Shown one piece after another: positions 4,322 to 51,861 of a stretch of DNA of 63,878 nt. Source of the stretch: Verrucomicrobiota bacterium (GTDB lineage: Bacteria; Verrucomicrobiota; Verrucomicrobiia; Opitutales; Opitutaceae). Below the pieces are notes generated by a model. It saw only the letters and a list, made by a program, of their open reading frames with translations, was not told where the DNA came from and ran no database searches. Position 1 is the first letter of the stretch, and every line of letters starts with the position of its first letter. The position numbers were made by a program, and so were the translations under genes. The stretch is taken from NCBI GenBank assembly GCA_018239675.1, contig JAFEGX010000067.1:1-63878 (forward strand). Reading direction: 5' to 3'.

Positions 4322-4484
4322 TTACGATTTCGGATTTGCGATTTACGATTGAAATCCACCGCGACCAAGGGCCGCCGGCGATACTCTGCAGGGGAATGGG
4401 ACCCTTGCGCACCCGACGCGGGGCGCATCGAGGGCCGCCGGCCAAGATCGTAAATCGTCAGTCGTAAATCAGAAATCGAAAACC
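4322..4484. repeat. long imperfect inverted repeat of ATTTACGATT words
   Basis: The left arm (4322-4355) reiterates words such as CGATTTACGATT. The right arm (4447-4484) carries the complementary words ATCGTAAATCGT and TCGTAAATCAGAAATCG. The roughly 90-base interior holds a direct repeat AGGGCCGCCGGC at 4368-4379 and 4431-4442. It fills the junction between convergent genes (DUF481 and WD40). It may serve as a bidirectional terminator, but it has no run of T residues. Confidence 0.7.
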
Positions 4485-4485
4485 C

Positions 4486-5523
4486 CTACGCTTCGCACTT
4501 GAGGACGTAGATCACGCCCTTCTCCGAGCCGATGGCGAGCTGGGCGTCGTCGGGCGACCAGACGAGTTTCGTCGCCGCGGCCGGCATCTTCACGGTGGCG
4601 CGCAGGGGCTGACGGCGCTCCGGGCTCCAAATCTGCAGCACGCCATCCTGGGAGCTGGTGGCGAGCAAGCCGTGCGAGCGCTGAAACGCCACGGCGCAGA
4701 TCTTTGCGTCGTGCGGCAGCATCGTGGGTTCGCGTCCCTCCGGGCCCGCCCCCGCGCAGTCCCAAATACAGCAGTCCTTGCCGCCACCCGTCGCGAGCCA
4801 GCGGCTGGTGTGGTCGAAGGAGAGCTCCCTCACTTTGCCCTCGTAGCCGCTCATCTGGAGCTCGAGGTCCTCCTCGGGCACCCAGAGGTGCACGGACGGG
4901 TCCTGGTTTCCGGAGACCAGCCAGCGGTTGTCCGGCGACCACAGCAGCGCGTGGATACCGTTGTTATAGCCGAATTCCTTCTGGGCGACAAAATCGTCGG
5001 CGTCCCACAGGCACACCCCGCCGAAATAGGAGACTGCCACGCAGCCGCCGGCCGGCTGCCAGGCCACGGCCGAGATCGTCTTGGGCGCCGCCTTGAAGGC
5101 ATGAGCGAGCGCGCCGTCCGGCTGCAACGCGAAGAGTCCCTTGCCCGCGGCGGCCATGAGCAGCGGCCGACGGGTCGCGCTGTCCGGCTGCGGGGCCGGG
5201 CGCCAGCCGAGATGCTCGACCCAGGCGTTGCCGAGTGGCGCGGTGGCGGTGTGCTGGCCGGCAAGGGCGTCCCAAAATTTCACGGCGCCGTCCTGCCCGC
5301 CCGTGGCGAGCAGCGGCGGCGCGCCGGTCGCTGGCGACCAGCCCAGGCAGTTCGTGCCGCCGTCATGTCCCGGCAAAGCATGGCGCTGCGCGCCGTCAGC
5401 ACCGGCCAGAATCGTGACCGGACCGCTGGCCGCCGCGGCTGCCAGCAGCGAGCCGTCGGGCGACCAGGCCAGGTCGATCACATAGTCTTCAAGGGTCGCG
5501 GCCCAGTGCTTGGTCAGATTCAC
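4486..5523 (-). CDS. WD40 repeat protein
   Basis: About 345 residues from a GTG at 5523. At least six WD-type blades can be followed by motifs such as DLAWSPDG, LGWSP, GAVKFWD, LLWSPDN, LSFDHTSRW, VLQIWSPE and LVWSPDD, consistent with one seven-bladed propeller. No signal peptide is visible, so it is probably cytoplasmic. There is no ATG in frame near the first blade; GTG 5523 was chosen because it begins just before the first strand (VNLTKHW), and upstream TTG codons are alternatives. It is convergent with the DUF481 gene and divergent from the sugar transporter. WD40 proteins are scaffolds, so no specific function can be given. Confidence 0.8.
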   Translation of the reverse strand: MNLTKHWAATLEDYVIDLAWSPDGSLLAAAAASGPVTILAGADGAQRHALPGHDGGTNCLGWSPATGAPPLLATGGQDGAVKFWDALAGQHTATAPLGNAWVEHLGWRPAPQPDSATRRPLLMAAAGKGLFALQPDGALAHAFKAAPKTISAVAWQPAGGCVAVSYFGGVCLWDADDFVAQKEFGYNNGIHALLWSPDNRWLVSGNQDPSVHLWVPEEDLELQMSGYEGKVRELSFDHTSRWLATGGGKDCCIWDCAGAGPEGREPTMLPHDAKICAVAFQRSHGLLATSSQDGVLQIWSPERRQPLRATVKMPAAATKLVWSPDDAQLAIGSEKGVIYVLKCEA

Positions 5524-5844
5524 GGTGTGGGGAGCCAACGCAATCCGCCATGCCCCCGATGGCAAGCCTGCCGCGACCGGACGGCCGCGGGCAAGAGCGG
5601 GATTAGAGATCCGACAGTCGTGGCAGTGGAGGAGCGCCGGCTCACGCGCCCGGCGGGCGGTCGCGCCGGGTGAACCTCCGAGGGCCGGCCGTTGGAATAC
5701 GGGAGAGCGCGAAACTTGAATCCCGAACTTCGCGACGGCGAGGCCGCCGCCTGATGAACGTTCGGGTGATTTTGTGTCGCGCCGCCCTTGGGCGCCCCCA
5801 AGCATCAGGCCGCTTTCCCGCCCTGGCTTCCCCGGCCTGTCGTC
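5524..5844. promoter_or_regulatory. divergent intergenic region upstream of the sugar ABC operon
   Basis: These 321 bases lie between the divergent WD40 gene and the solute-binding protein gene. They contain a small inverted pair CGCGAA (5708-5713) and TTCGCG (5729-5734) flanking an AT-richer core, which could be an operator or part of a worn word repeat. No clear promoter hexamers are visible. Confidence 0.35.
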
Positions 5845-7317
5845 ATGAGACGCACCCTTCTGTTCAGCCTGCTCGCCCTCACGCTTCTGAGCGCGGCGCT
5901 TTACTGGACGAAACCTGAAAACCGAAGCACGGGCACGGTACTTTACTGGATGACCCAGAACGACGCCGTGAAACGCGAGACCGTCGCGCTCTTCCGGCAG
6001 TGGCTCGTTGAGCAGGGCCTGCCACCCGTCGAGGTGCGCATCGACCACTCCAACCAGGACATCACCAAGAAGCTCGTCCAGGGCGTGTCGGGCGTCGGCG
6101 GCGACCTCATCGACCTCTATTTCTCGGAGCTCGAGACGATGCAGGCGACCGGGATGCTCACCGACCTGACTGACCTGGCGCGGCGCGAGGGCTATGGCAC
6201 CGCGATGACCTATCCGGCCGCCTACAGCGACATCACCGTGCGCGGACGACAGTACGGTTTCCCCCGCAACGTGGATGTCACGATGATCTGGGTAAATCGC
6301 GACACCTTCGCCCGCTACGGGCAGCCGGAGCCGCCGCAGCGCTGGTCGTGGGACGAGTTTGAGGAGTGCGGCAAGCGCTTTGTTGCGGCGGCCAACCCGC
6401 CCGGCACCCGGCACCGCGTTTATTACCTCAACCGGGTCTGGCCGTACGTGCTGCGGCGCGGGCTGGGCCTGTCGACCTTCAACGAGACCATGACCCGCTG
6501 CACGCTCGACGACCCGCGCAACGTCGAGGTGCTGCGCCGGATGTACCGCTGGACCGTGGAAGAGCGGCTGATGCCGACAGCGGCGGACCAGGCGGCGATG
6601 GCGGCGGACGGGACGGCCTTCGACAGCTCGTTCGGGCTGTTTGCGTCGGGCCGCTTCGCGATGATCTACGAGGGGCTGTGGGCGCTGATCCGGCTGCGGC
6701 CGCTGGGTGACTTCCGGCTGGGCGCGGTGGAGCCGTTCACGGGCGGGTTTGCGAACACCGAGATCGGCAGCGGCGCGGTCGCGGTGTATGCGGGCTCGAA
6801 ACATCCCGTGGAGGCGCGGCGCTTCCTGCAGTTCCTGGCCAGCGAGCCCTTCAACCTGCTGATCGCGCGCAGCGGCGACTCGCTGCCGCCGGTGCCAAAG
6901 TATGCTTCGCGCCGCGAGTTTCTCGAGCCGCCGGGTTATGAGCGGGACTGGGCGGCCAAGGCGGAGTTCGCGCGCGCCGGGACCACGATCGCGATTGCCC
7001 AGAGCAAGAGCCCGTTTGCCCTGCCCAGCGTCGTGTACAAGATCGATGGCTCGGCCGCGGAGGCGGTGATCGCGGGCCAGCGGACGCCGGAGGAGGCGGC
7101 GCGCGAGGAGACGCAGCGGATCAACGCCGAGATCGCGCTGACGATCAGCCAGGACGCCGGCCTGCGGCACCTCTACGACGAGCAGGTCGCGCGGCAGCGG
7201 CAGATCGACGCGCGCCGGGCCGCCGGGCGGAAGGTGCCCGCGGCGTGGATCAGCGATCCGTTCCATCTCGCCTATTACCGCGCGCAGGGCTGGCTGGAGG
7301 AGGAGCCCCCCCGATGA
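5845..7317 (+). CDS. sugar ABC transporter, solute-binding protein (family 1)
   Basis: 490 residues. The N-terminus (MRRTLLFSLLALTLLSAALYW) is a basic-hydrophobic export signal or membrane anchor without a lipobox cysteine. The rest has the layout of family 1 extracellular solute-binding proteins: VLYWMTQNDAVKRETV at the start of lobe one, a DLYFSELETMQATGML region, and a late segment AGSKHPVEARRFLQFLAS typical of maltose/multisugar binders. It begins a three-gene operon, and its stop overlaps the next start (ATGA at 7314-7317). The ligand is unknown; nearby polysaccharide genes suggest a glycan fragment. Confidence 0.88.
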   Translation: MRRTLLFSLLALTLLSAALYWTKPENRSTGTVLYWMTQNDAVKRETVALFRQWLVEQGLPPVEVRIDHSNQDITKKLVQGVSGVGGDLIDLYFSELETMQATGMLTDLTDLARREGYGTAMTYPAAYSDITVRGRQYGFPRNVDVTMIWVNRDTFARYGQPEPPQRWSWDEFEECGKRFVAAANPPGTRHRVYYLNRVWPYVLRRGLGLSTFNETMTRCTLDDPRNVEVLRRMYRWTVEERLMPTAADQAAMAADGTAFDSSFGLFASGRFAMIYEGLWALIRLRPLGDFRLGAVEPFTGGFANTEIGSGAVAVYAGSKHPVEARRFLQFLASEPFNLLIARSGDSLPPVPKYASRREFLEPPGYERDWAAKAEFARAGTTIAIAQSKSPFALPSVVYKIDGSAAEAVIAGQRTPEEAAREETQRINAEIALTISQDAGLRHLYDEQVARQRQIDARRAAGRKVPAAWISDPFHLAYYRAQGWLEEEPPR

Positions 7318-8795
7318 AACCCCGCCGCCGTCTCCAGCGCTGGCTCACCGGCGTGGCGTTCCTGCTGCCCAACATCGCGGGCTTCTGCGCGTTCACGCTG
7401 GTCCCGCTCGTGATGAGCTTCGCGATGGCGTTCACGAACTGGGATATCCTCCGCCACAATCTCTTCCGCCATGACCCGCTGCGGTTTGTCGGCCTGGCGA
7501 ACTTCGCCCGCCTGTTCGCCGATACGGAGTTCTGGCGGGACCTCGGCAACACGCTGTTTTTCCTGCTGGGCCTCCCGTTCGCGATCGCGGGCAGCCTGAT
7601 CGCGGCGCTGCTGCTCACCCGCGTGGCCAAGGGCCGGGCCGCGAGCGGCCCGCTGCTGGCGGTGGCGACCATCGTGCTGGTGGCGAGCGCCGCCGTGCTG
7701 GTGGTGGGCGGGTTTTCCCGCAACGGCGTGCTCGGCCTCTTTGGCCTGATGGCCGGGGCGGTCCTGGTGGCCGGCCTGCTCTCGGGCGGCACCGCGTACC
7801 GCACGCTGTTCTACCTGCCGCACTTCACGGCGGGCGTCGCGACGTTCGTCCTGTGGAAGAAGCTCTACAATCCCCACACGGGTCCGTTCAACACGGCGCT
7901 GGCTCCGGTGCTGGACGGGGTCTCGGCGATGGTGCGCGCCGCGCCGGCATTCTTCACCTACGGCCTGCCCGCGCTCTGCGGCTGCGCCGCCGTGGCGATT
8001 GTGCTCTGGCAGGAGAACCGCCTGCGCCGGCGCTGGGAAGATGGCGAGGCGGGCACGGCGGCGATCGCGGCGGGGGCCGTCACGCTCGCGCTGCCGCTGG
8101 CCTGTTTTCTCCGCTGGCAAGGCTGGTCGCTCGCCCTGGCCCTCGGCGCGGCGGCCGCGGCGGCGGGATTGCTGTTCGGCGTGACGGTCCGCCGGCCGCG
8201 TCCGTGGGGCCGGGCGCGCTCGATCGATGCCGGGTTGAGTTCCGAGCTGAGCCTCGCGCTGGTGGGGGTTCCGCTGCTGCTGGCCATCACCGGCGGAATG
8301 CTGGCGGGTCCGGCGCTGCCGGCGATGGCCGTGGCCGGCTTTGAGCCGCCGAACTGGCTCGGCGAGTACGCCTGGGCCAAGCCGGCCCTCATGATCATGG
8401 CGCTGTGGGCCGCGATCGGCTCCAACAGCATGATCCTGTACCTGGCGGGCCTGAGCAACATCCCGCCGGAGCTGTACGAGGCGGCCGACATGGACGGGGC
8501 GTCCGCGATGCAGCGGTTCTGGCACATCACGTGGCCGCAGCTGGCGCCCGTGACCTTCTTCATCGCCGTGATGGGCGTGATCAACGGCCTGCAGGGCGGC
8601 TTCGAGATGGCGCGCACCATGACGCTCGGCGGCCCGGCGGGGGCCACCACGACGCTGAGCTACTTCATCTTCTCCCAAGGCTTCGAGACCGGGCGGCTCG
8701 GCTACGCGTCGGCGATCGCGTGGGTGCTCTTCGGCCTGGTGTTCGTCTTCTCCCTCGTGAACTTCCGGTTCGGGAACCGTGACGTGAATGACTAA
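7314..8795 (+). CDS. sugar ABC transporter permease, MalF-like, enlarged
   Basis: 493 residues, against about 300 for most permeases of this family. The start (FLLPNIAGFCAFTLVPLVMSF) and the cytoplasmic EAA loop (EAADMDGASAMQRFWHITWP, near residue 393) are canonical. Two hydrophobic blocks look inserted: one after GLPFAIAGSLIAALLL (LLAVATIVLVASAAVLVVGG and following) and a longer one around residues 220-345, together adding several membrane segments. The gene overlaps the binding protein by four bases and the next permease by eight, so the three are translationally coupled. The EAA loop should dock an ATPase, but none is encoded nearby, so a shared MsmX/MalK-type ATPase elsewhere is likely. 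Confidence 0.85.
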   Translation: MKPRRRLQRWLTGVAFLLPNIAGFCAFTLVPLVMSFAMAFTNWDILRHNLFRHDPLRFVGLANFARLFADTEFWRDLGNTLFFLLGLPFAIAGSLIAALLLTRVAKGRAASGPLLAVATIVLVASAAVLVVGGFSRNGVLGLFGLMAGAVLVAGLLSGGTAYRTLFYLPHFTAGVATFVLWKKLYNPHTGPFNTALAPVLDGVSAMVRAAPAFFTYGLPALCGCAAVAIVLWQENRLRRRWEDGEAGTAAIAAGAVTLALPLACFLRWQGWSLALALGAAAAAAGLLFGVTVRRPRPWGRARSIDAGLSSELSLALVGVPLLLAITGGMLAGPALPAMAVAGFEPPNWLGEYAWAKPALMIMALWAAIGSNSMILYLAGLSNIPPELYEAADMDGASAMQRFWHITWPQLAPVTFFIAVMGVINGLQGGFEMARTMTLGGPAGATTTLSYFIFSQGFETGRLGYASAIAWVLFGLVFVFSLVNFRFGNRDVND

Positions 8796-9633
8796 GCCCG
8801 CTCCAGTCTCCGACCGCCGTCCCCCGCGCCTGGCGGGCGTCGGCCTGCACGTGCTCATGGCCGGGCTGAGCCTGACGATGGTGGCGCCGTTCCTCTGGAT
8901 GGTGCTGGCGAGCCTGAAGACGATGCCCGAATCGATGGACCCGGCGTGGCTCCCGAAGACGGCGCAATGGGGCAACTACCTCGAGGTGTTTGACGTGATC
9001 CCGTTCCTCCGGTTCATGGGCAACAGCCTGGTGGTGGCGGGGTGGGTGACGCTCCTGCAGGTGATCACCAGCGCGCTGGCGGCCTACAGCTTTGCCCGGC
9101 TCGAATGGCCCGGGCGCGACCGGATGTTCTTTCTCTATCTCGGCACCATGATGCTGCCGGGCATCGTGATGCTCATCCCGAACTACGAGATCATGGTGCG
9201 GGCGGGCCTGATGGACTCGTTCCTCGGCCTCGTGCTGCCGTCGGCCTTCAGCGCCTTTGGCACGTTCCTGCTGCGGCAGTTCATGCTCGGCATCCCGCGG
9301 GCGCTGGACGAGGCCGCGGAAATCGACGGGGCGAGCAAGTGGCGGATCTTCTGGGACGTGATCCTGCCCCTGAGCCGGCCCGGCATCGTGACCCTCGCGA
9401 TCTTCACGTTCATGGGAAACTACCACAGCTTCTTCTGGCCGTTCGTGATGATGAAGACCGTGGACAACTACACGCTGCCGGTGGGCCTGCTGTTTTTCGA
9501 CTCGGAGCACGGCCAGGTCACGAACCTGCTCATGGCCGCCGTCACGATGTCGGTCTTGCCGCTGATCGTGATCTTCGTCTTCCTGCAGCGCCAGCTGATC
9601 CGCGGCATCCAGATCGGAGCGGTCAAAGGCTAG
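8788..9633 (+). CDS. sugar ABC transporter permease, MalG-like
   Basis: 281 residues, normal length for the family. About six membrane segments are visible, starting with HVLMAGLSLTMVAPFLWMVL. The EAA loop reads EAAEIDGASKWRIFWDVILP near residues 173-192, followed by LSRPGIVTLAIFTF. It is the partner of the enlarged MalF-like permease and overlaps it by eight bases. It is the last gene of the operon; a large inverted repeat follows. Confidence 0.92.
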   Translation: MTKPAPVSDRRPPRLAGVGLHVLMAGLSLTMVAPFLWMVLASLKTMPESMDPAWLPKTAQWGNYLEVFDVIPFLRFMGNSLVVAGWVTLLQVITSALAAYSFARLEWPGRDRMFFLYLGTMMLPGIVMLIPNYEIMVRAGLMDSFLGLVLPSAFSAFGTFLLRQFMLGIPRALDEAAEIDGASKWRIFWDVILPLSRPGIVTLAIFTFMGNYHSFFWPFVMMKTVDNYTLPVGLLFFDSEHGQVTNLLMAAVTMSVLPLIVIFVFLQRQLIRGIQIGAVKG

Positions 9634-9639
9634 GTGCCG

Positions 9640-9853
9640 GAGGGATTCGGACGAACGCCGAACATCGGAAGCCCAACGCCGGACGCCCCTGTTCCCAGCG
9701 TTCAGCTTTCAACGCTCAGGTGGACTGTTCAAGCGCCGTGTCACGCAATGCGTGACACGACCCACCAGTTGCGACCGGAGAGCGCTGCGCTGCACTCTCC
9801 TTCGGTGTTGGGCGTTCGGCGTAGGATGTTCGACGTTCGTTCGACTCCGACCC
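9640..9853. repeat. complex inverted repeat with nested perfect palindromes
   Basis: The gap between convergent genes is almost wholly repeat. Left words (CGAACGCCGAACATCGG, AAGCCCAACGCC) are mirrored on the right by complements of CGAACGTCGAACAT and GCCGAACGCCCAACACC. Inside lies a perfect 11-base stem, CGTGTCACGCA at 9737-9747 and its complement at 9749-9759 with a one-base spacer. A smaller pair GGAGAG/CTCTCC follows at about 9778-9801. A TTCAGCTTTCAACGCTCAG stretch at about 9701-9719 belongs to the word family seen at 48005-48099. Confidence 0.75.
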
Positions 9854-10597
9854 CTACGCTTTCTTCACCCGGATCACTTCCTCCCAGTCATACACGCCTT
9901 CGGTGGCCTTCCCGGGCGGGATGGTGAGGTATTCCTTCGGGTCCCAGTGCCCGTGGATGAGGCCCTCGATGAGGCGGATGTTGCCCGGGAGTTCCACGGG
10001 TTGTTTGCCGGCGGCGGCGGCCTTCTCGCGGAAGCGGGCGGCGTAACCGAGGTGGGCGGTCTGCGGGAGCTCGATGAAGACGGCGCGGTCGTTGCCATGG
10101 TCCGGGTGCATCTCGGCCCAGATGTATTTGGCGTCCTCCTCGCCGTATTTCTCGATGAGGGCCTTGTAGGCGTCGCCGACCTGGACCTCCGGGGCGCCGT
10201 CGTCGCTGGTGCGGAGGAAATAGTTGCCGCGCTCGATGTAGCCGGCCGAGGAGAACGGCGTGCTGGGCGCGTCGCCGAAGTGCTCGGCGAACTTGGCGCG
10301 CGAGCCCAGCAGGATGGTGCAGCAGTCGTGGGCGCGAGGGATCACGAGCGGCGTCTTGCGCGCCTGCAGGCCCACCGTGGCATTGCCACACAGGCCGAAC
10401 AGGAGCAGGATCGCGTCGTAGGCCTTCCCGCCGGCCTCGGTGGCATCGATCCGCGACTGGATCAACTGCCGCAGTCCCGCGCTGCGCACATGCTCGCCGA
10501 GTTCGGTGTACTCGACATCGACGACTTGGGGCGAGCGCGCGATGCACCATGAGGCTTCACGCTGGAACACATTGCACGAGATCAATTTCAGGAGCAT
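9854..10597 (-). CDS. DUF1638 domain protein
   Basis: 247 residues, cytoplasmic, no signal peptide. The N-terminus MLLKLISCNVFQREASW, the YDAILLLFGLCGNATVGL segment and the RAHDCCTILLGS motif match DUF1638 proteins. That family is uncharacterised and tends to occur beside corrinoid-dependent methyltransferase genes. A URO-D-family methyltransferase lies 5.7 kb away in this window, but no corrinoid-binding protein is present. The conserved His-Asp-Cys could bind a metal, which is inference. Confidence 0.8.
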   Translation of the reverse strand: MLLKLISCNVFQREASWCIARSPQVVDVEYTELGEHVRSAGLRQLIQSRIDATEAGGKAYDAILLLFGLCGNATVGLQARKTPLVIPRAHDCCTILLGSRAKFAEHFGDAPSTPFSSAGYIERGNYFLRTSDDGAPEVQVGDAYKALIEKYGEEDAKYIWAEMHPDHGNDRAVFIELPQTAHLGYAARFREKAAAAGKQPVELPGNIRLIEGLIHGHWDPKEYLTIPPGKATEGVYDWEEVIRVKKA

Positions 10598-10641
10598 GGG
10601 CGGAGGACAGGGTGGAAGGGCCGCGCAGTATGCCGCAATTC

Positions 10642-10730
10642 ATGCGGGTTTGCCCCGCATTTCTTGCCCGAATCTCCGCGGGAATTAGGGCGGATTATTG
10701 TCCACCACGAAGAGCACGGAGGGCACGAAG
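10642..10730. repeat. intergenic hairpin and CACGAAG word repeat
   Basis: A perfect 7-base stem ATGCGGG (10642-10648) and CCCGCAT (10654-10660) with loop TTTGC lies about 45 bases upstream of the DUF1638 start. It is followed by a tract of CACGAAG-type words at 10705-10730. The same words form the inverted repeat at 50872-50933. The remaining bases of the 10598-10836 gap show nothing else. Confidence 0.55.
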
Positions 10731-10836
10731 CGAATCCGGTTCCCGCAGTGGAACGGGACGGGATGACCACCGCCGAGTAGGCTAGGGTGGCGAAGCCTGG
10801 CCCGATTCGTGATCCTCGGGTTCTTCGGGGCGAACC

Positions 10837-11751
10837 CTACCGGGCCAAGTGGGCCTGGGAGGCGCGGACCGGCTGGCGTGGGACATTCGGCCGAGTGAAT
10901 GGCGCGTAGGTGTCGGGCCGGCGGTCGTTGAGCATGTCGATGCGCCAGACCCAGTCGCCCGGCCGGGTGAACTGCGTGGCGACGCGCGGGGACGCGAGGT
11001 CGATGGTCGTGAGGGCAATGCCCGGATGCCGGCCCGCGTCGGCCAGGATCGTGGAGTCCGGGGCAATGATGCTGCTGCGGCCGAGCAGCATGCCCGGCAT
11101 CCACGCGCGGTCCGGCGGGCAGCCGAAGCAAACGGGCACGTGGTGCACGCCGTTGTGCACGGCCGGTGCCCGCAGCAGGATGTCCATGAACACGTCACCC
11201 CAGCCGCTCATCACGTGCGGCCAGAAGATGACCTCGGCGCCATTGAGCGCGAGGCAGCGGGCGCTCTCGGGGAACGAGTTGTCGTGGCAGATCTGGATGC
11301 CAATTCGCGCCCCGGCCACCTTGAAGACCGGCCAGGCGTCGCCCGGGACGGTGCCGTACGCCTCCTCGTTCTCGATCGTGTGCACCTTCGTGTAGCGCCC
11401 GAGCACGCGGCCGCGCCGGTCGAACACGACCGCGAGGTTGCGCACGACGCCGTCGACCAGCGCGAGGATCGGGACGACCAGGGCCATCCGGTGCCGGCGC
11501 GCGATCGGCGCAAACCGCCGCACCGCCTCGGCGAGGGCGCGGCGCACGAGCGGCGGCGTGGTGCGCCGCGTGAGCCTCGCGCCCAGCACGTTGAACGTTT
11601 CCCCGATGCAGGCGATATCGGCCCCGCGCCGGCCGGCCTCATTGAGCCAGGTCTCGGCCAGCGCGAAGTTGGCGCGCTGGCGCGCGGCATTGGTGCGGCC
11701 CGGCGCGACGGAAGGCAGCTGCACGGCGGCGATGGTGAGCGGTCGTTTCAT
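10837..11751 (-). CDS. carbon-nitrogen hydrolase (nitrilase superfamily)
   Basis: 304 residues. The Glu-Lys-Cys catalytic triad is visible: IGETFN (Glu near residue 48), RYTKVHT (Lys near 134) and QICHDNSFPES (Cys near 168). The surrounding segments, LALNGAEVIFWPHVMSGWGD and VPVCFGCP, fit an amidase or N-carbamoyl amidohydrolase branch. It is cytoplasmic, without a signal. It begins 13 bases after the stop of the large lyase-like gene on the same strand, so the two are probably one transcript. The substrate is not predictable. Confidence 0.9.
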   Translation of the reverse strand: MKRPLTIAAVQLPSVAPGRTNAARQRANFALAETWLNEAGRRGADIACIGETFNVLGARLTRRTTPPLVRRALAEAVRRFAPIARRHRMALVVPILALVDGVVRNLAVVFDRRGRVLGRYTKVHTIENEEAYGTVPGDAWPVFKVAGARIGIQICHDNSFPESARCLALNGAEVIFWPHVMSGWGDVFMDILLRAPAVHNGVHHVPVCFGCPPDRAWMPGMLLGRSSIIAPDSTILADAGRHPGIALTTIDLASPRVATQFTRPGDWVWRIDMLNDRRPDTYAPFTRPNVPRQPVRASQAHLAR

Positions 11752-11764
11752 GGAAGGGCGGAGG

Positions 11765-17406: not shown

Positions 17407-17428
17407 GCATCCCGCGGTGGCGGGATGC
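17407..17428 (+). terminator. hairpin directly after the URO-D-family stop codon
   Basis: GCATCCCGC (17407-17415) and its perfect complement GCGGGATGC (17420-17428) form a 9-base stem with a GGTG loop, starting on the base after the TGA. It lacks a T run, so it may stop or protect the transcript without being a classical intrinsic terminator. Confidence 0.55.
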
Positions 17429-17474
17429 GGAGTTCGGAGAGCGGAACTCGTAGGGCGAAAGGCGCTCGGTGGAA

Positions 17475-17697
17475 CGCATTGTCCCCATGCGTGGTTGGCC
17501 GGACTCGAACCCGAATTCCGAGTCCCGGGCCTAGAGCGAATTCAATAATGGCGAAGCCGCAAAGAGGCGCAAAAAACGCAGATCAATCTTGTTCCAGCTC
17601 CAGCGGCAGAGGGATCGTTTACCACGGATTATTACCCAGGTAGGGCGAAACGCTGGGGCGACGCGTTCTTGCGCTTTTTGCGCCTCTTTGCGGCTAC
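17475..17697. repeat. two word-repeat elements at a convergent junction
   Basis: The first element (17475-17535) has CGCAT...ATGCG and GGACTCG...CGAGTCC stems around GAATTC words. The second has the left arm at 17555-17580, beginning AGCCGCAAAGAGGCGC, and a right arm at about 17672-17697 whose complement matches it at 25 of 26 bases. The spacer is about 90 bases. The words recur at 43593-43621, 49716-49749 and 51759-51861. A short direct repeat TAGGGCGAAA is at 17451 and 17641. Confidence 0.8.
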
Positions 17698-17741
17698 AAG
17701 TTTTGTTAAAATGCTCTGGCCTCCGCCAAAGCCGGCGGCGG

Positions 17742-32532: not shown

Positions 32533-32608
32533 GCGGTGGACGGTTGGCGGTTGAAAGATGACCAGCCCACGGGCCTCCGCGGACTGCTCACTGTCCACCG
32601 CCATCCGG
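32533..32608. repeat. inverted repeat of GCGGTGGAC words
   Basis: The left arm GCGGTGGACGGTTGGCGG (32533-32550) is mirrored by CTGTCCACCGCCATCCGG (32591-32608), whose complement is CCGGATGGCGGTGGACAG. It lies just after the 3' end of the CusF-like gene. Confidence 0.55.
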
Positions 32609-33035: not shown

Positions 33036-33211
33036 GTAGTAGATTGTAGATGGAAGATGGGAAGTAGGCGCATAGAGATGAATTTCGGCATCTTTCGGCC
33101 GAACGCCGCGGCCTTGGGGAATGTCATCCTTCACTGCGCTCAGGATGACCGCCAAGCTGCCAGGCATGACGGCTGATCGCCTATGGCTTATAGCCTATAG
33201 CCAATAGCCAA
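33036..33211. repeat. three different word repeats in one gap
   Basis: Three motifs stand side by side. The first is AGTAGATTGTAGATGGAAGA (about 33038-33057). The second is a hairpin GTCATCCT (33123-33130) with AGGATGAC (33142-33149). The third is a tract of GCCTATAGCC-like words at 33181-33211. They fill most of the 248-base gap between the CusF-like gene and the pseudopilin-like gene. Confidence 0.6.
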
Positions 33212-33232
33212 GAGCTCACCGCTCTCCCGCGG

Positions 33233-35163: not shown

Positions 35164-35166
35164 GGC

Positions 35167-40049: not shown

Positions 40050-40127
40050 GCGGAGCCCTGTGATGCTAGAATTGGGCCAACCCCGCAAGCGGGTTAAAAG
40101 CTGCGGCGCGCGGCTGGAGCCTAGATC

Positions 40128-40273
40128 GGAATTCGGGATTCGGCGATCGAGTTCGACCGCCCCGATGACCGCATTGTCCTCAATGCGCTGCGGCCCGGAT
40201 CGAGCCGGCGCGTTGGGGCCAACGCGCGACCCCGGACCGAATTCCGAATTTCGGGCCCCAAATCCCGAATCCG
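40128..40273. repeat. inverted repeat of GAATTCGGGATTCGG words with two nested hairpins
   Basis: The left tract GGAATTCGGGATTCGGCGAT (40130-40149) is mirrored by CCGAATTCCGAATTTCGGGC and AAATCCCGAATCCG on the right (to 40273). Nested inside are a perfect 7-base stem CGCATTG/CAATGCG at 40170-40187 and a perfect 9-base stem GCGCGTTGG/CCAACGCGC at 40208-40227. It lies between divergent genes, so it shares space with their promoters. The rest of the 40050-40420 gap has no other feature. Confidence 0.7.
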
Positions 40274-40420
40274 TCCTGCTCCCAAGCAACAATCCGGTTA
40301 AATCTTGCGGCGGTCCGGAGGATTTTCCGTGCACCGGGGCGAGGTTCTGACCAATCCTGAAGGCTCCGGCGCGCCTGCGCGGTGCCGGCACCGCCGCCCT
40401 CCCGACTCCCGACCCTGCCC

Positions 40421-41944: not shown

Positions 41945-42133
41945 GCGGCATTTTGGGCCCCCGGGACTCACGGAAGAAACGGAAGCGGGCGACGGGCAGG
42001 CCGAACGATTGCTCGAGACACGACTCCAGGTGGTCCGCGGGCCCAGCCGCCACGGACGCTGAAGCGCGCCGCAGGTTACATTTGGGTGAATTATTAGTGC
42101 ATCGGCGACCGATTCGGATAAACCCGTGCGCTC

Positions 42134-43477: not shown

Positions 43478-43492
43478 CCGCGGGCTTTTAGG

Positions 43493-43676
43493 TGTCAGGG
43501 AGCAGGAGTCAGGAATCAGGGTAGGGTGCTCCAATCCGATTGATCGTGGTCCGACCGCGTCGCTGAACCGTCCAGCCCCAAGCCTCCGCTTCTTTTTGCG
43601 CCTGCGGTGCCTCCTTGCGGCCAACCGCATCGGACCTAGCCGAAGCCTCCCGCCTATCGCCTAAAGCCTATCGCCT
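43493..43676. repeat. three word repeats at a convergent junction
   Basis: AGGAGTCAGGAATCAGGG-type words lie at 43493-43521. A TTTTTGCGCCTGCGGTGCC tract at 43593-43621 is the complement of the GCCGCAAAGAGGCGC family seen at 17555-17697. CCTATCGCC words lie at 43648-43676 and resemble those at 33181-33211. The gap separates the second carrier from the MBL hydrolase. Confidence 0.6.
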
Positions 43677-43683
43677 CCAGCCT

Positions 43684-44487: not shown

Positions 44488-44558
44488 TCCAGCCCTCCAT
44501 GCCCCCGCTGACGGGACGGTGCAATGGAAAATCAAAGGTCCAAGCGCGAAGGGATTTG

Positions 44559-44691
44559 CACAGGAGGCAACGGAGTTGGGGAGCCGCCAATCTCCGCTAA
44601 TCCCCACTAATCTTGTTTCGAAAACCCATGAGTGAGATTTAGCGCGAATTAGTGGTTCCCATCCCCTCCGTTCCCTCCGTTGCCTCCTGTG
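44559..44691. repeat. long perfect inverted repeat with nested second stem
   Basis: CACAGGAGGCAACGGAG (44559-44575) and its exact complement (44675-44691) form a 17-base stem. Inside, CCACTAAT (44604-44611) and ATTAGTGG (44648-44655) form a second stem. Words of the type CTAATCCCCACTAATCTT fill the interior. It lies directly after the 3' end of the kinase/pyrophosphorylase fusion gene on the minus strand. Confidence 0.82.
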
Positions 44692-44695
44692 AAGA

Positions 44696-48046
<3,351 letters not shown>

Positions 48047-48094
48047 TGGCGGGCGGTCAGGGTGAATCGGCTTTCACCTTTCAACGCTCAACTA

Positions 48095-48958
48095 TCAACG
48101 ACGCGCTTCCCGCGCTTCTTTCGGCCGCTGCGCCAGCAGCTCGACGAGCTGGGTCAGCAGGGCGTCGCGGTCCTTGCCGGCGAGGGCGAGGGCGAGCTGG
48201 GCGAACAGCAGGCCGTAGGTCGCCCCGATGTCGTAGCGCTGGCCGGCGACGGAGAATGCGAGGTAGCGCCGCTGGGCCGCGAGGGCGTGCAGGGCGGGGG
48301 AGAGGCTGATCCGGCCGTCGGGCTGGGCGGCCATCTGGCGGATGAGGAGCTCGAAGATGTCGCCGTCGAGCACGTGCATGCCGAAGAAACAGAGGAAGAA
48401 TCCGGCGCGGAGTCCCGGCACCAACAGCTCCTGCTCCGCGACCGTCGGAGTCGGCTTTTCGAGCACGGCCTCGATCTGGTACAGCGGGAGGTCGCGGCCG
48501 ACGAGCTTGCCGCCGACGGCGCCGAAGGATGTGAGCAGGTTCTCGCGGGTGGGCTGGACGGCCGAGACCGGCGAGTTCTCCGCGGCCGCGATGTCGATCA
48601 GCTGCCGCGCGCAGGTCTTCGCGCCGGTCGAGACCGCAAGATGGTCGCCGACGAGGTGGAGAAACGGCTCGGTGCTGCAGAACTCGCGGCCGCAGAGCAC
48701 GGCATGACCGTAGCCGCGGGGCTCGGCCTGGAGGGCGAACCGCACGCGCGGCCGCAGCGGCCCGCAGGCCTCGGCGTAGGCGGCCTCGTCGCCCGGGCAG
48801 ACGACCACGCAGAACTCCTCGACCCCGCCGCTGGCGGCCTCCTCGAGCAGGAGCCGGAGTGCCGACTTGGCCTCGCCGTCGGGACCGATCAGCACTTGCA
48901 GGGGCAACTGGCGCTGGCGGGCATTCGCCGCGGTGATCAAGGCCTTGCGGATATTCAT
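48095..48958 (-). CDS. GalU-like nucleotidyltransferase with altered nucleotide-binding loop
   Basis: 287 residues. The fold is that of bacterial UTP-glucose-1-phosphate uridylyltransferase: VVVCPGDEAAYAEAC, RGYGHAVLCGREF, HLVGDHLAVS (the metal-binding GD region) and VLEKPTPT. The usual AAGxGTRxLPxT loop reads AANARQRQLPLQ, so the key glycines are missing. It may still bind UTP in a different way, or it may be a partner of the fusion protein that follows on the same strand 48 bases downstream. Function as a UDP-sugar enzyme is inferred from fold and context. Confidence 0.75.
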   Translation of the reverse strand: MNIRKALITAANARQRQLPLQVLIGPDGEAKSALRLLLEEAASGGVEEFCVVVCPGDEAAYAEACGPLRPRVRFALQAEPRGYGHAVLCGREFCSTEPFLHLVGDHLAVSTGAKTCARQLIDIAAAENSPVSAVQPTRENLLTSFGAVGGKLVGRDLPLYQIEAVLEKPTPTVAEQELLVPGLRAGFFLCFFGMHVLDGDIFELLIRQMAAQPDGRISLSPALHALAAQRRYLAFSVAGQRYDIGATYGLLFAQLALALAGKDRDALLTQLVELLAQRPKEAREARR

Positions 48959-49050
48959 GGGGCAGCGTTTCAGTCAGGCGAAGCGGGAAAGATGACACAA
49001 ATTGTTTCGGCGGAGGACGGGCCCAGAGGGAGGCTTTTGGGAAAAACATT

Positions 49051-49151
49051 ACGCTCGACGTTCAACGCTGAACACCGAAGTGGATTCCAGGTCCATCATA
49101 AGAGGGAAGCTGTCCCATTCAGCGGCCGGCATCCTTGAGCGTTGAGCGTTC
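49051..49151. repeat. degenerate GTTGAACG word repeat upstream of PTPS
   Basis: The left tract ACGCTCGACGTTCAACGCTG (49051-49070) is mirrored by TTGAGCGTTGAGCGTT (49135-49150). It lies between the divergent GalU-like and PTPS-like genes. The flanking bases 48959-49050 and 49152-49233 have no feature I can name. Confidence 0.55.
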
Positions 49152-49233
49152 TCCCCAACGAACAGGTCGCGAGTCCCAATTATCCTCCGCCCGAGTTGAC
49201 GCCGCCGCTCCCTTGGCTTCCCTTGGTTCCTCC

Positions 49234-49698
49234 ATGCCAACCCGCCGCACCTCCGCCCGCCGCGCGCCGCGCGTGCTCACCGGCACTGTGTACATCACGC
49301 GGCAGGTGCATTTTAACGCGGCCCACCGGCTCCACAATCCGGCGAAGAGCCAGAAATGGAACGAAGAGAAATACGGGCTGTGCACCAATCCGCATTGGCA
49401 CGGGCACAATTACGTCCTCGAGGTCACGCTCCGCGGCCAGCCGGATCCCGAGACCGGCTACGTCATGGACCTCGGCGAGCTGAAGCGGATCCTGCAGCGC
49501 GCCATCATCGACCACTGCGACCACCGCAACCTCAACGAGGAGGTGCCGTTCCTGCGCGGGATCAATCCGTCGACCGAGAACCTCGTGATTGCCTTCTGGA
49601 ATGAAATCGCGCCCCGCATCACGTCGGGCACGCTCCACTGCGTGCGGCTCTTCGAGACGCCGCGCAACTACGCCGAGTATTTCGGTCCGGAGGCCTGA
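49234..49698 (+). CDS. 6-pyruvoyl-tetrahydropterin synthase-like protein (PTPS/QueD family)
   Basis: 154 residues. Zinc ligands are seen in FNAAHRLHN and HWHGHNY, the catalytic cysteine in GLCTNPHWHGHNY, and further conserved blocks in DPETGYVMDLGELKR and DHRNLNEEVPF. The spacing Cys-x5-HGH matches the animal-type PTPS rather than bacterial QueD (Cys-x3-HGH), so it probably makes 6-pyruvoyl-tetrahydropterin. The next genes are FolE2 and a short-chain dehydrogenase. A QueD function (queuosine pathway) cannot be excluded. Confidence 0.82.
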   Translation: MPTRRTSARRAPRVLTGTVYITRQVHFNAAHRLHNPAKSQKWNEEKYGLCTNPHWHGHNYVLEVTLRGQPDPETGYVMDLGELKRILQRAIIDHCDHRNLNEEVPFLRGINPSTENLVIAFWNEIAPRITSGTLHCVRLFETPRNYAEYFGPEA

Positions 49699-49715
49699 AC
49701 CGGCCCATGGGTTTG

Positions 49716-49833
49716 GCCGCACGAAGGCACAACAGGCGCAGAGGAAGCCACTATCCTCGGCAAACCCGGTTTCCTATTTTCCCACTTTCGCATTATCCCA
49801 ATCTTGACTGAGCGAGTCCCGCGGCCGCGGGAC
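49716..49833. repeat. CGCAAAG-type word tract and an 18-base palindrome
   Basis: GCCGCACGAAGGCACAACAG (49716-49735) and the bases up to 49749 resemble the word family at 17555-17697. A perfect palindrome GTCCCGCGGCCGCGGGAC lies at 49816-49833, 50 bases before the FolE2 ATG; it could be an operator or a hairpin. Confidence 0.5.
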
Positions 49834-49883
49834 AACGGTTATCGTCCCAACCGCCCGGCCCTGTGCCACGCACCAAAAACGAC

Positions 49884-50861
49884 ATGAAGAAAAAGCCGAT
49901 GTATCTCCACCGCGCCGCGGATGGCACGCCCCCGCGCATCAAGCGCGGCTACGACGCGAAGTTCCGCGCCCCGCCGGCCTACCGCGCGACGCTGCCCGAC
50001 ATGATGGAGGCCGCGCACGACGCCATCCAGGGCGCCAACGTGCCGATCCAGCAGGTCGGCATCCACAATTTCCGGCTCCCGCTCAAGTTCCGCACGAAGA
50101 CGGGCCGCACGCTCACGCTCGAGGGCAGCGTCACCGGCACCGTTTCGCTCGAGGCCGAGCTCAAGGGCATCAACATGAGCCGCATCATGCGCTCGTTCTA
50201 CGAGCACAAGCACGGCACCATGACGGCTGAGTGGATGGGGCGCATTCTAAAAACCTACCTGCGCCGCGTGGACAGCAAGGCGGCCCGGCTGAAGGTCGCG
50301 TTTTCGTACCCGATGCTCCGGCCCAGCCTGCGCAGCGGGCTCGAGGGCTGGCAGTACTACGAAGTGGCGTTCGAGGGCGTGATGACCCGCGACGGCAACT
50401 ACCGCCGGTTCATCCATTTCGACTTCGTGTATTCGTCGGCCTGCCCGTGCTCGGCGGAGCTGACGGAGCACGCCCGCGACCGTCGCGGCACCTACGGGGT
50501 CCCGCATTCGCAGCGCAGCAAGGCGCGGATCACGATCGAGGAGGCCGAGGGCCGGAAGATCTGGATCGAGGACGTGCAAGCGCACTGCCTGCGCGCGCTT
50601 CAGACCGAGACGCAGGTGATGGTGAAGCGCGAGGACGAGCAGGCGTTCGCCGAGCTCAACGGCGCGCACCTGAAGTTCGTCGAGGACGCGGCGCGGCTGC
50701 TGTACCGCGAGTTTGACGCCGACAAGCGCATCAAGGACTTCCAGATCGCTTGCTCGCACCTCGAGTCGCTGCACTCGCACGACGCCGTGAGCGTGATCTG
50801 CAAGGGCGTCTCCGGCGGCTTCACCGCCGACTTCATGAACTTCGGCTCGCTGCTGTGCTGA
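49884..50861 (+). CDS. folE2: GTP cyclohydrolase FolE2 (type IB)
   Basis: 325 residues from the ATG at 49884 (a GTG at 49863 is an alternative). It converts GTP to 7,8-dihydroneopterin triphosphate, the first step toward pterins, folate or queuosine. Seen: [29 protein letters not shown], the catalytic [15 protein letters not shown] with the conserved Cys, and the end [16 protein letters not shown]. The first 40 residues are a lineage-specific extension. FolE2 is the metal-flexible alternative to FolE. It follows the PTPS-like gene after 185 bases. Confidence 0.93.
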
Positions 50862-50871
50862 GGCTGGTTCG

Positions 50872-50933
50872 CCACGAAGCGCACGAAGGATCCGATCCAG
50901 TCTGCCTCTTGGTGAACTTCGCGTCCTTCGTGG
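50872..50933. repeat. inverted repeat of CACGAAG words
   Basis: CCACGAAGCGCACGAAGGAT (50872-50891) and the tract ending CCTTCGTGG (50925-50933) form an imperfect hairpin directly after the folE2 stop. The same words occur at 10705-10730. Confidence 0.65.
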
Positions 50934-51011
50934 TAAGGATTCGGTCGGGAACAGGACAGGCTCGCGCTTGGCCCGCAGCCAGGGCAAAAAGTGTCCCAAT
51001 CACCACCTAAC

Positions 51012-51719
51012 ATGAAAACAGTCGTGCTCATCACGGGTGCCTCGCAAGGGATTGGAGCAGCGATCGCGAGGGAGTTCGCCGCGGAGATTCGCGGCGTGAA
51101 GCTCGCGCTCGTGGCGCGCAGCGAGCCGCGGCTGGCCGCGGTGGCCAAGGCCTGTGGAAAATGGGGGGCGAAGGTGGCGGTGTTTCCGTGCGACGTCACG
51201 GACGAGGTGGCGGTGGCCGCGCTCGCGAAGGCGGTAACGAAGCGCTTCGGTACGGTCGACGTGCTCGTCAACAACGCCGGCAAGTTCGCCGGGGCGCCGT
51301 TCCTGAAATTCCGCCTGGAGGACTTCGACCGCATGATCGCCACGAATCTCCGCAGTGCGTTCCTGGTGTCGCAGGCAATCGTCCCGGCCATGGCCAAGCG
51401 CGGACGCGGTGATGTATTCAACATCAGCTCGATCGCGGGGCAGATCGCCTACCCGGGCGGGGCGGGCTACAGCGCGGCCAAATTCGGCCTGACGGGCCTG
51501 TCGAAGGTCATGCGCGCCGAGCTCAAGACTCGCGGCGTCCGCGTCTGCTGCGTCCATCCGGGTGCGACGGCCACGCCGTCGTGGAACGGCAGCGGGGTCC
51601 CAGAGTCTCGCATGATGCCCGCCAAGGACATCGCGAGGAGCATCGTCGACATCTACCGGCTCTCCCGCCGCACCGTGGTCGAGGAAATCGTCCTGCGGCC
51701 GCAGCTCGGGGATATTTAA
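51012..51719 (+). CDS. short-chain dehydrogenase/reductase
   Basis: 235 residues. The Rossmann motif TGASQGIG lies near residues 8-15, NNAG near 89, and the catalytic triad is seen as NISSIAG and YSAAKFGLTG. Position after the PTPS-like and FolE2 genes suggests a sepiapterin-reductase-like role, converting 6-pyruvoyl-tetrahydropterin to a tetrahydropterin; SDR enzymes cannot be assigned a substrate by motif, so this is inference. The ATG at 51012 is preferred to a GTG at 50991. Confidence 0.85.
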   Translation: MKTVVLITGASQGIGAAIAREFAAEIRGVKLALVARSEPRLAAVAKACGKWGAKVAVFPCDVTDEVAVAALAKAVTKRFGTVDVLVNNAGKFAGAPFLKFRLEDFDRMIATNLRSAFLVSQAIVPAMAKRGRGDVFNISSIAGQIAYPGGAGYSAAKFGLTGLSKVMRAELKTRGVRVCCVHPGATATPSWNGSGVPESRMMPAKDIARSIVDIYRLSRRTVVEEIVLRPQLGDI

Positions 51720-51758
51720 TGGCCAGCTGTCAGCGGTCAGCCTGATTCCCGCGGAGTC

Positions 51759-51861
51759 GCCGCAAAAAAGCACTGGAGGCAGAGAGGGGCTTCCAATCTT
51801 GAGTGACCGGGTTCTCTGGCGATGGAGCCTTCGTCGATGCGCCTTTGCGCTTTCTTGCGGC
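51759..51861. repeat. inverted repeat of GCCGCAAAAAAGC words at a convergent junction
   Basis: GCCGCAAAAAAGC (51759-51771) is mirrored by GCTTTCTTGCGGC (51849-51861). The flanking bases carry GGAGGCAGAG and GCGCCTTTGCG words of the same family as 17555-17697. It lies between the SDR and esterase genes. Confidence 0.65.

What the first reader, a model, noticed from the sequence alone, without database searches (positions are those of the whole stretch)
4322..51861. Many different intergenic inverted repeats made of reiterated short words
At least twelve gaps hold long imperfect inverted repeats whose arms are made of short degenerate words, mostly 7-11 bases. The word differs between gaps: ATTTACGATT at 4322, CGAACGCC at 9640, GCCGCAAAGAGGCGC at 17555, GCGGTGGAC at 32533, CCTATAGCC at 33181, GAATTCGG at 40128, AGGAGTCAGG at 43493, a 17-base perfect stem at 44559, GTTGAAAG at 48005 and CACGAAG at 50872. 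Copies of one word family lie kilobases apart. The sequences look like products of one copying or expansion process acting on unrelated seeds. I cannot name a known repeat class of this design.
Basis: partly seen in the sequence, partly recalled or inferred. Interest (0 to 1): 0.8.

Follow-up and report, generated by a model that had tools for sequence, protein, structure and literature searches.

The report
Word-built repeats flanking two orphan genes
The odd palindromic repeats between genes in this bacterium look like the arms of two kinds of tiny jumping elements, one carrying a gene for a Cas4-like DNA-cutting enzyme and one a gene for a helix-bundle protein, and the same pairing of repeat and gene turns up in many distant bacteria.

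Summary
In 461 kb of this genome, 74 of 265 intergenic gaps hold a strong inverted repeat; shuffles of 207 of these gaps gave 0.67.

The words fall into two kinds: arms that repeat at exactly 7 bases, and arms that repeat at 8-10. Each kind also occurs with a small gene between the arms. [quoted passage not shown] Arms of 8-10-base words flank a GxxExxY gene (PF13366), a PD-(D/E)XK nuclease whose predicted fold is closest to SSO0001. At least seven of the ten named words have a like partner in this genome or genus.

The pairing recurs in cyanobacterial plasmids (10 of 10 read) and around GxxExxY genes in about a dozen phyla (61 of 80). Protein and word similarity correlate. Sister species have empty gaps or other words at the same sites. 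One 185-bp element has about 30 copies here and none full-length in 11 relatives.

I read these as mostly gene-less copies of two families of small mobile elements. That the encoded proteins move them is inferred, not shown. Terminator, reverse-transcriptase and RAYT readings are disfavoured.

The parts
4316..4488 (.). Kind B (heptamer) inverted repeat, word ATTTACG/ATTTCGG; arms 4316-4350 and 4453-4488; fills the gap between two convergent stop codons
   Evidence: score 19.3, lag 7; gap is 32 nt in G010 and holds another word family in G008 and G009; gene-bearing partner with the same word L155 in G010
9643..9848 (.). Kind B inverted repeat, word CGAACGC; arms 9643-9687 and 9804-9848
   Evidence: score 23.0, lag 7; gap 16 nt in G002; like word around a broken PF05635 gene in L148 (score 13.8)
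17534..17718 (.). Kind A gene-less element of about 185 bp, arms 17555-17580 and 17670-17695 (AGCCGCAAAGAGGCGCAAAAAACGCA), ends at CTAG
   Evidence: 38 own-genome matches, one 31-base match in 11 relatives; 31 copies aligned; like word around GxxExxY in L153
32538..32611 (.). Kind B inverted repeat, word GGTGGAC/GGTTGGC
   Evidence: score 15.8, lag 7; no gene-bearing partner found for this word
33181..33215 (.). Unpaired heptamer array, word CTATAGC
   Evidence: 20 of 23 matches at lag 7 at 33186, no inverted partner; only a similar word, L125, around a PF05635 gene with a stop
40127..40273 (.). Kind B inverted repeat, word GATTCGG, in a divergent gap
   Evidence: score 13.0, lag 7 at 0.43; absent from sister gaps read; like words around PF05635 genes in L147 and L160
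43483..43680 (.). Mosaic of unpaired arms: GAGTCAG heptamers, a GCGCCT..TTGCGGCC arm, a CCTATCG heptamer array
   Evidence: no matched inverted repeat (7.3), tandem lag 7; gap 14 and 18 nt in G010 and G011
44554..44696 (.). Kind A inverted repeat, word ACAGGAGGCAACGGAG, around a degenerate inner CTAAT repeat
   Evidence: score 17.6, lag 9; same word around the own-genome GxxExxY gene in L084
48004..48100 (.). Kind B inverted repeat, word GTTGAAA
   Evidence: score 16.8, lag 7; same word around the own-genome PF05635 gene in L126
50872..50933 (.). Kind A inverted repeat, word CACGAAG, behind folE2
   Evidence: score 10.4, lag 9 at 0.81; same word around GxxExxY in L082 of G008; other words or nothing in five sisters
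51759..51861 (.). Weak kind A arms GCCGCAAAAAAGC / GCTTTCTTGCGGC
   Evidence: score 10.8

Best explanation
The inverted repeats are the arms of two families of small mobile elements, most of them copies without a gene. Kind B has arms of exact 7-base words; its gene-bearing form encloses a gene of about 120 codons for a four-helix-bundle protein (PF05635, known from 23S rRNA intervening sequences). Kind A has arms of 8-10-base words (CRCRGAG plus 2-3 spacer bases in one widespread subfamily); its gene-bearing form encloses a gene of about 120 codons for a GxxExxY protein, a minimal PD-(D/E)XK nuclease with a QxxxY motif. Shown: the gene-arm pairing, the two word lengths, the correlation of protein and word, presence or absence between species, and a species-specific burst of one gene-less element. 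Inferred: each protein recognises its own word, probably when the arms fold as hairpin or cruciform, and cuts or holds the DNA so that host replication or repair copies the element into another gap, often beside a stop codon and possibly at TA or CTAG; gene-less copies are moved in trans, as MITEs are; slippage lengthens the word runs, and copying between the two arms keeps them matched while the words drift.
For: Arms at score 16 or more flank GxxExxY in 25 of 30 loci and PF05635 genes in 16 of 30, against 4 of 86 ordinary genes (at 14 or more: 27, 18 and 12 of 86); a second batch gave 3 of 4 and 13 of 16. Lag 7 only for PF05635 arms, lags 8-10 for GxxExxY arms. 10 of 10 cyanobacterial plasmid loci read. 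61 of 80 named GxxExxY loci over about a dozen phyla with words CRCRGAG. Mantel r 0.54 and 0.52; arms match best within their own element in 26 of 31 and 26 of 30. Sister gaps empty or with other words. Filled and empty sites in Nostoc plasmids. 31 aligned copies of one element with sharp ends, one 31-base match in 11 relatives. PD-(D/E)XK and QxxxY residues conserved in 41 sequences, fold model pLDDT 96, best PDB match SSO0001.
Against: No binding, cutting or movement was tested. G015 has both genes but no word repeat in 59 gaps, G012 and G014 only 5 of 96 and 2 of 64. Plasmid GxxExxY genes have arms in only 2 of 5. In the 185-bp family one-sided arm changes (83 cells) far outnumber compensatory ones (7), so arm copying is at most occasional there. 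Some gene-less copies share arms but not interiors. Long target duplications were not seen. PMC4692102 reports most Xanthomonas heptamer sites between the same genes in two species and few inverted pairs in Anabaena (passages), which fits slow or past movement better than active movement.
Confidence: 0.72

Rival explanations
1. They are bidirectional transcription terminators or 3' mRNA-stabilising hairpins kept by selection at gene ends.
For: Preference for gaps with a gene end: inverted repeats in 23 of 49 convergent, 46 of 168 co-directional, 5 of 48 divergent gaps; heptamer elements lie a median 6.5 nt behind a stop codon. G.U exceeds A.C among mismatches of gene-less heptamer elements on the gene strand (29 against 12, p 0.012).
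Against: Almost no T tract behind the stems: sides with 5 or more T of 8 are 1 of 56, 0 of 46 and 1 of 46 in this genome, though 19 of 122 in the cross-phylum set, where many genomes are AT-rich. The same places are empty in sisters. G.U shows no excess in the other sets. It does not explain the enclosed genes. A role after insertion is not excluded.
Confidence: 0.1
2. Ordinary MITEs of a TA-target transposon (IS630/Tc1 type) or of another transposase elsewhere in the genome; GxxExxY and PF05635 genes are passengers.
For: Most ends of the 185-bp element read CTA|GAGC and GCTC|TAG (at least 21 of 31 left, at least 18 of 31 right). Gene-less copies are far more numerous than gene-bearing ones.
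Against: The gene-bearing forms carry these two proteins and nothing else; protein and word correlate, in about a dozen phyla for one subfamily. No Y1 transposase in the own genome. IS630-type transposases were not searched for, so this rival stays open, above all for the 185-bp element.
Confidence: 0.1
3. mRNA intervening sequences: kind B, and perhaps A, act at RNA level like 23S IVS, with RNase III cutting the stem, and spread through RNA copies.
For: PF05635 is the 23S intervening-sequence protein; IVS have complementary borders and are cut by RNase III (PMC4990558, part 1 of 6 read).
Against: No reverse transcriptase (PF00078) in any of the 13 genus and family genomes. Mismatches of gene-bearing arms show no G.U excess on the gene strand (52 against 57, 20 against 41, 21 against 36). 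RNase III cutting itself was not testable.
Confidence: 0.08
4. Slippage plus template switching at any small palindrome makes such arrays without a dedicated protein.
For: Arms are degenerate tandem runs and match better within than between elements.
Against: The same words recur at many places and, for GxxExxY, across phyla; exact period 7 against 8-10 by protein class; homologous interiors in about 30 copies.
Confidence: 0.03

Closest known systems
23S rRNA intervening sequences (IVS) with S23p / PF05635
   Same: Same protein family inside complementary borders; PMC4990558 calls the Coxiella element selfish (abstract and introduction); PMC11270868 finds the gene in 16S and 23S insertions of CPR bacteria (passages).
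   Different: Here the elements lie between protein genes, the arms are heptamer arrays, and gene-less copies abound.
Heptamer repeats: cyanobacterial STRR (recalled), GGGAATC in Xanthomonas (PMC4692102, passages), TAACTGA (PMC4679880, abstract and passages)
   Same: Seven-base period, intergenic, degenerate; 70 inverted pairs of GGGAATC in one Xanthomonas.
   Different: TAACTGA is mostly direct and just upstream of start codons; Anabaena has few inverted pairs and Xanthomonas sites are mostly at shared positions. The passages I saw name no encoded protein.
MITEs and REPINs
   Same: Short, dispersed, intergenic inverted repeats with many copies lacking a gene.
   Different: Arms are reiterated words of many families; enclosed genes are a nuclease or helix bundle, not a transposase; no Y1 transposase in this genome.
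Cas4/RecB-like PD-(D/E)XK nucleases
   Same: GxxExxY keeps D, E, K and QxxxY and its model is closest to SSO0001 (TM 0.58 by query length), which I recall as a Cas4 exonuclease.
   Different: Only about 118 residues modelled, and encoded inside a repeat element.

Membership tests
23S rRNA intervening sequence (IVS) | PF05635 ORF between complementary borders | tested here: met
   kind B only: 29 of 46 genus and order loci at score 16 or more, 10 of 10 plasmid loci
23S rRNA intervening sequence (IVS) | located in an rRNA gene | tested here: not met
   plasmid copies lie between protein genes such as nrdB/nrdA and cas6/cas4; window elements between protein genes
23S rRNA intervening sequence (IVS) | RNase III excision | not testable with these tools
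   needs RNA
Cyanobacterial STRR / heptamer repeats | tandem period of 7 | tested here: met
   lag 7 for PF05635 arms and for 28 of 74 own-genome inverted repeats
REPIN / RAYT system | cognate Y1 transposase (PF01797) in the genome | tested here: not met
   no match in G000, a draft 95.5% complete
Intrinsic terminator | T tract behind a GC-rich stem | tested here: not met
   2 of 148 sides in this genome
Diversity-generating retroelement (Avd partner) | reverse transcriptase in the genome | tested here: not met
   0 of 13 genus and family genomes
MITE of a TA-target transposon (IS630/Tc1 type) | TA target duplication and a related transposase-bearing element | tested here: inconclusive
   TA or CTAG at most ends of 31 copies, duplication against terminal repeat not separable; transposase not searched for
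PD-(D/E)XK nuclease (GxxExxY) | conserved active-site D, E, K and core fold | tested here: met
   PF13366; D63 and K75 invariant, E73 at least 90% in 41 sequences; model and PDB match

The most novel reading that the evidence does not exclude
A new kind of mobile DNA without transposase, recombinase or reverse transcriptase, spread over about a dozen bacterial phyla. One small protein (a stripped-down Cas4-like nuclease, or an Avd-like helix bundle) recognises short words reiterated in two inverted arms and lets host replication or repair copy the element. Word and protein evolve together. The unexplained heptamer repeats of cyanobacteria and Xanthomonas would be its gene-less copies.
Probability: 0.42. 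Interest if true: 0.93.

Novelty: new variant of a known kind. Interest (0 to 1): 0.82.

Why it matters
Two widespread protein families of unknown purpose (GxxExxY and the 23S intervening-sequence protein) would get a role, and intergenic heptamer repeats described in print would get an origin. It makes a sharp, cheap prediction in any sequenced genome: such a gene should sit between inverted copies of a word that also occurs without the gene elsewhere. If the proteins do move the elements, this is mobility by a small nuclease or helix bundle acting on word arrays, unlike known transposition.

Tried and rejected
Rejected or not pursued. Intrinsic terminators: almost no T tract in this genome. 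RAYT/REP for the word elements: no Y1 transposase in the own genome, although most sister genomes have 1-3; a GTAG-headed hairpin family in the sample may still be REP-like. Spread by reverse transcriptase: none in the 13 genus and family genomes. Selection on RNA pairing: the G.U against A.C counts pull in different directions (GxxExxY genus 20 against 41, PF05635 21 against 36, cross-phylum 52 against 57, gene-less heptamer 29 against 12), so I build nothing on them. Rfam: no hit at gathering score in the window. tRNAs: none. Phages: no relative of either protein found.

Papers. Five word strings: no paper. Six others: 106 papers, 20 listed, those listed unrelated by title. The term GxxExxY: two papers; of one I read the passage, which is about reverse-transcriptase neighbours, of the other only the listing. 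PDDEXK_3, PF13366, 23S_rRNA_IVP, PF05635: four papers, of which I read passages in two. Four-helix-bundle protein with repeats, S23 protein and mobile element: none with three of the four terms. The Genome Research 2008 paper on small cyanobacterial repeats is not held; it and the STRR papers are recalled only. So my statement that the gene-repeat link is not in print rests on these searches of one open-licence library.

Limits. Gene calls are home-made. The 461 kb are 26 stretches picked by contig number or because a search had hit the contig, not a random sample. Word-partner matches for the window words and the reading of sister gaps were made by eye; two long sister gaps (915 and 2112 nt) were not read. 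10-mer sharing summed over all 74 elements is not denser in gaps than in coding DNA (22 against 23 per kb), because GC-rich composite arms also hit coding sequence; the excess shows only against shuffled arms. Of 38 own-genome matches of the 185-bp element I aligned 31 (the window copy and 30 fetched), leaving out short and self-inverted matches; the tool scored 40 of 69 candidates, so the copy number may be higher. In the first flank test the motif was found in 24 of 30 loci, and 15 of 24 scored 16 or more; the repeat by match coordinates used all 30. The heptamer excess over sisters compares all own stretches with sister stretches syntenic to the window; the window alone has 3 in 64 kb.
Full report
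What is in the window. The window is contig 112 of a 3.85-Mb draft genome in 148 contigs, about 68% GC. I called genes with a hexamer model and looked for the best inverted repeat in each gap. In the first 207 gaps (window plus 20 stretches, 366 kb), 57 scored 14 or more, against a mean of 0.67 in dinucleotide shuffles and 9 in length-matched coding stretches; at 16 or more it was 43 against 0 and 2. With five more stretches (461 kb) it was 74 of 265 gaps.

Two kinds of word. Classified by the lag at which the arms match themselves, 28 of the 74 are heptamer arrays (1.5 expected from shuffled arms) and 23 have a lag of 8-10 (7.1 expected). The other 23 include nested and composite arms and plain hairpins. 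Heptamer elements lie a median of 6.5 nt behind a stop codon and, in co-directional gaps, 55 nt before the next start. Inverted repeats of all three classes together occur in 23 of 49 convergent, 46 of 168 co-directional and 5 of 48 divergent gaps. Since some sister species have gaps of 10-32 nt at these places, closeness to stop codons need not mean a function there.

The same gap in sister species. Eleven genomes of the same genus are held; six were compared with the window by synteny. Five word-repeat gaps (4319, 9634, 17407, 40050, 50862) have orthologous gaps in sisters, and none of those I read holds the window's word (by eye). They are short (10, 13 and 32 nt against 335 at 17407) or hold something else. 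Behind folE2 (50862) the window has CACGAAG arms, G010 CGCGGAAG-like arms, G009 CGCAAAG arms, G008 ACAGAG arms, G011 13 nt. G002 has CGCGGAT arms around a gene recognisable as GxxExxY; that copy has an in-frame stop.

A gene inside the arms. That gave the test. GxxExxY (TIGR04256) has 1-6 matches in every genus genome. Of the 30 loci fetched, 25 have an inverted repeat of score 16 or more around the gene, against 4 of 86 ordinary genes; at 14 or more, 27 against 12 of 86. From memory I expected the heptamer kind to go with the four-helix-bundle family TIGR02436/PF05635 and made this a second test. It has 2-11 matches per genus genome, 11 in this one; 16 of 30 loci reach score 16. A further batch gave 13 of 16 PF05635 and 3 of 4 GxxExxY loci. 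The period is exact: PF05635 arms match themselves at lag 7 (0.65 against 0.29) and show no excess at any other lag from 3 to 13; GxxExxY arms show it at lags 8, 9 and 10. Near-identical window words occur around such a gene in this genome (ACAGGAGGCAACGGAG in L084, GTTGAAA in L126) or a sister (ATTTACG in L155, CACGAAG in L082); like words were found for 9640, 17555 and 40128 (L148, L153, L147/L160), more loosely for 43493; only a similar word for CTATAGC (L125) and none for GCGGTGGAC (by eye).

Far relatives. In the plasmid collection PF05635 relatives occur in 25 records, mostly cyanobacterial. I fetched 10, and all 10 have inverted heptamer arms (scores 20-35; shuffled maxima 10-14). They lie between nrdB and nrdA, cas6 and cas4, or other neighbours. 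GxxExxY occurs in 7 plasmid records; of 5 fetched, 2 have arms. Of these, 61 score 16 or more; the best of ten shuffles per locus reaches 16 in 2 of 80. By record title those with arms cover about a dozen bacterial phyla (among them Bacteroidota, Verrucomicrobiota, Planctomycetota, Chloroflexota, Acidobacteriota, Pseudomonadota, Cyanobacteriota, Spirochaetota, Chlamydiota) and one bin labelled Methanosarcinales. The commonest words are CACAGAG, CGCAGAG, CACGGAG and CGCGGAG, that is CRCRGAG, at lags 9 and 10.

Protein and word go together. Protein similarity and word similarity correlate (Mantel r 0.54 for 31 PF05635 and 0.52 for 30 GxxExxY elements with arms, of 46 and 34; maxima of 2000 permutations 0.24 and 0.21). 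Within an element the two arms match each other better than any other element's arm in 26 of 31 and 26 of 30 cases. Genomes of the order without either gene (G013, G016) have no heptamer and one 8-10-mer repeat in 169 gaps; three with the genes have 5 of 96, 2 of 64 and 0 of 59, so presence of the genes alone does not set abundance. The window's species has the most PF05635 matches of its genus (11 against 2-6) and more heptamer repeats (28 in 461 kb against 1 in 213 kb of sister stretches; 3 in 64 kb for the window alone).

Insertion sites. In Nostoc plasmids about 90-99% alike, the same junction is filled in some and empty in others. L131 and L136 are each other's empty site at two junctions. 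L132 and L165 are filled while L162 and L163 are empty, and L164 has a gene-less array at the same place; L133 is filled while L166-L168 are empty. Insertion lies at or close behind the upstream stop codon. By eye TA can be read on both sides, but two bases are weak evidence and one junction needs a small deletion. The window element at 17534-17718 has 38 matches in its own genome (some short) and, in 11 relatives, one 31-base match. Aligning 31 copies gives sharp ends: conservation drops outside, and at least 21 of 31 left ends read CTA|GAGC-like and at least 18 of 31 right ends CTAG. Arms differ less from consensus (0.09, 0.06) than the interior (0.15) or outer parts (0.20). Arms pair slightly better within copies than when reshuffled among copies (0.852 against 0.839, sd 0.004); compensatory cells are 7 against 3.5 expected (18 of 500 permutations reach 7), while 83 cells are one-sided changes. 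Other copies with the same arm word have unrelated interiors.

The proteins. GxxExxY matches PF13366, the other family PF05635 and in one of two cases weakly bAvd. No solved relative of GxxExxY was found by sequence; the PF05635 protein matches 2gsc (Xcc0516) and 2rld. In 41 GxxExxY sequences G20, D63, K75 and N104 are invariant, and G18, E23, Y26, E73, Q87 and Y91 are at least 90% conserved: the PD-(D/E)XK site with QxxxY. The AlphaFold2 model has mean pLDDT 96; the one PDB chain under E 0.001 is SSO0001, which I recall as a Cas4 exonuclease. So the enzyme is probably active on DNA; this was not tested.

How it may work. Shown are the element structure, the gene-arm pairing, the protein-word correlation, and presence or absence between species. 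Inferred is that the protein reads its word in the folded arms and cuts (kind A) or holds (kind B) it so that host synthesis copies the element elsewhere, that gene-less copies move in trans, and that slippage and copying between arms make and maintain the arrays. No reverse transcriptase was found in the 13 genus and family genomes and no Y1 transposase in this genome, so those two routes are not needed. A TA-target transposase was not searched for and stays open, above all for the 185-bp element.

What is known. PMC4990558 (part 1 of 6 read) calls the Coxiella 23S intervening sequence a selfish element with complementary borders, an S23p ORF and RNase III excision. PMC11270868 (passages) finds PF05635 in rRNA insertions of CPR bacteria. 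PMC10053308 (passages) notes its likeness to Avd. PMC4692102 (12 of 28 passages) describes GGGAATC heptamers in Xanthomonas with 70 inverted pairs in one species, close to genes; it also finds most sites shared between two species and few inverted pairs in Anabaena, which speaks against recent movement there. PMC4679880 (abstract and passages) describes TAACTGA arrays, mostly direct and upstream of start codons, and says no transfer mechanism is evident. None of the text I saw joins heptamer repeats to PF05635, or any repeat to GxxExxY; the searches behind this are listed under Tried and rejected. Cyanobacterial STRR are recalled, not read.

Noticed in passing
L013 7746-7824, L022 14269-14328, L026 7774-7832: A repeated hairpin GTAGCAGCCGACGTGAGGAGGCTG with a GTAG head, in inverted pairs, looks like a REP element, although no Y1 transposase was found in this genome.
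   Followed up: partly
window 33125-33152 and the G008 gap matching window 43478-43683: Hairpins of the type GTCATCCTTCACTGCGCTCAGGATGAC / GTCATTCTGAGCGTAGCGAAGAATC; a further short palindrome family.
   Followed up: no
gap matching window 5524-5844 in G009 (L051) and G010 (L049): Inverted GGTCAGA arrays apparently inside the extended reading frame of the gene at the left of the gap, in both sisters at one place; a possible coding-region insertion.
   Followed up: no
gap matching window 4319-4485 in G008 and G009: The two sisters seem to share one element (both with GCGCCTATAGGCGC-like centre) whose arms differ between species but match within each.
   Followed up: no
window 40166-40230; L017 15722-15949; window 9745-9765; L015 4312-4554: Recurring inner hairpins such as GCGCATTGTCCCCAATGCGC and GTGTCACTTATTGCGTGTCAC between word arms.
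   Followed up: no
L071 (G006:C277): Arms around a GxxExxY gene run in the opposite sense to those of near-identical genes in L067-L069, so gene or arms may have been turned round.
   Followed up: no
L022 11505-11695; L025 10854-10993; L023 14482-14627: Nested elements: one word pair enclosed in another, such as GGCGGTA arms around CCGCAAAAAGG arms.
   Followed up: no
window 10598-10836 and 49699-49883: Further decayed kind A arms (CCACGAAGAGCACGGAGGGCACGAAG; GGCCGCACGAAGGCACAACAGGCGCAGAG) in gaps not named in the finding; the six sister gaps read for 49699 are 66-84 nt and show no such arm.
   Followed up: partly
sister gaps of window 17407-17741 (G010) and 40050-40420 (G011): Other hairpins sit at the same sites: GTGGGAGCGAGCTTGCTCGCGA, like a Pseudomonas REP (recalled), and GTGGCACGGGTCTCCTGACCCGTG.
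   Followed up: no
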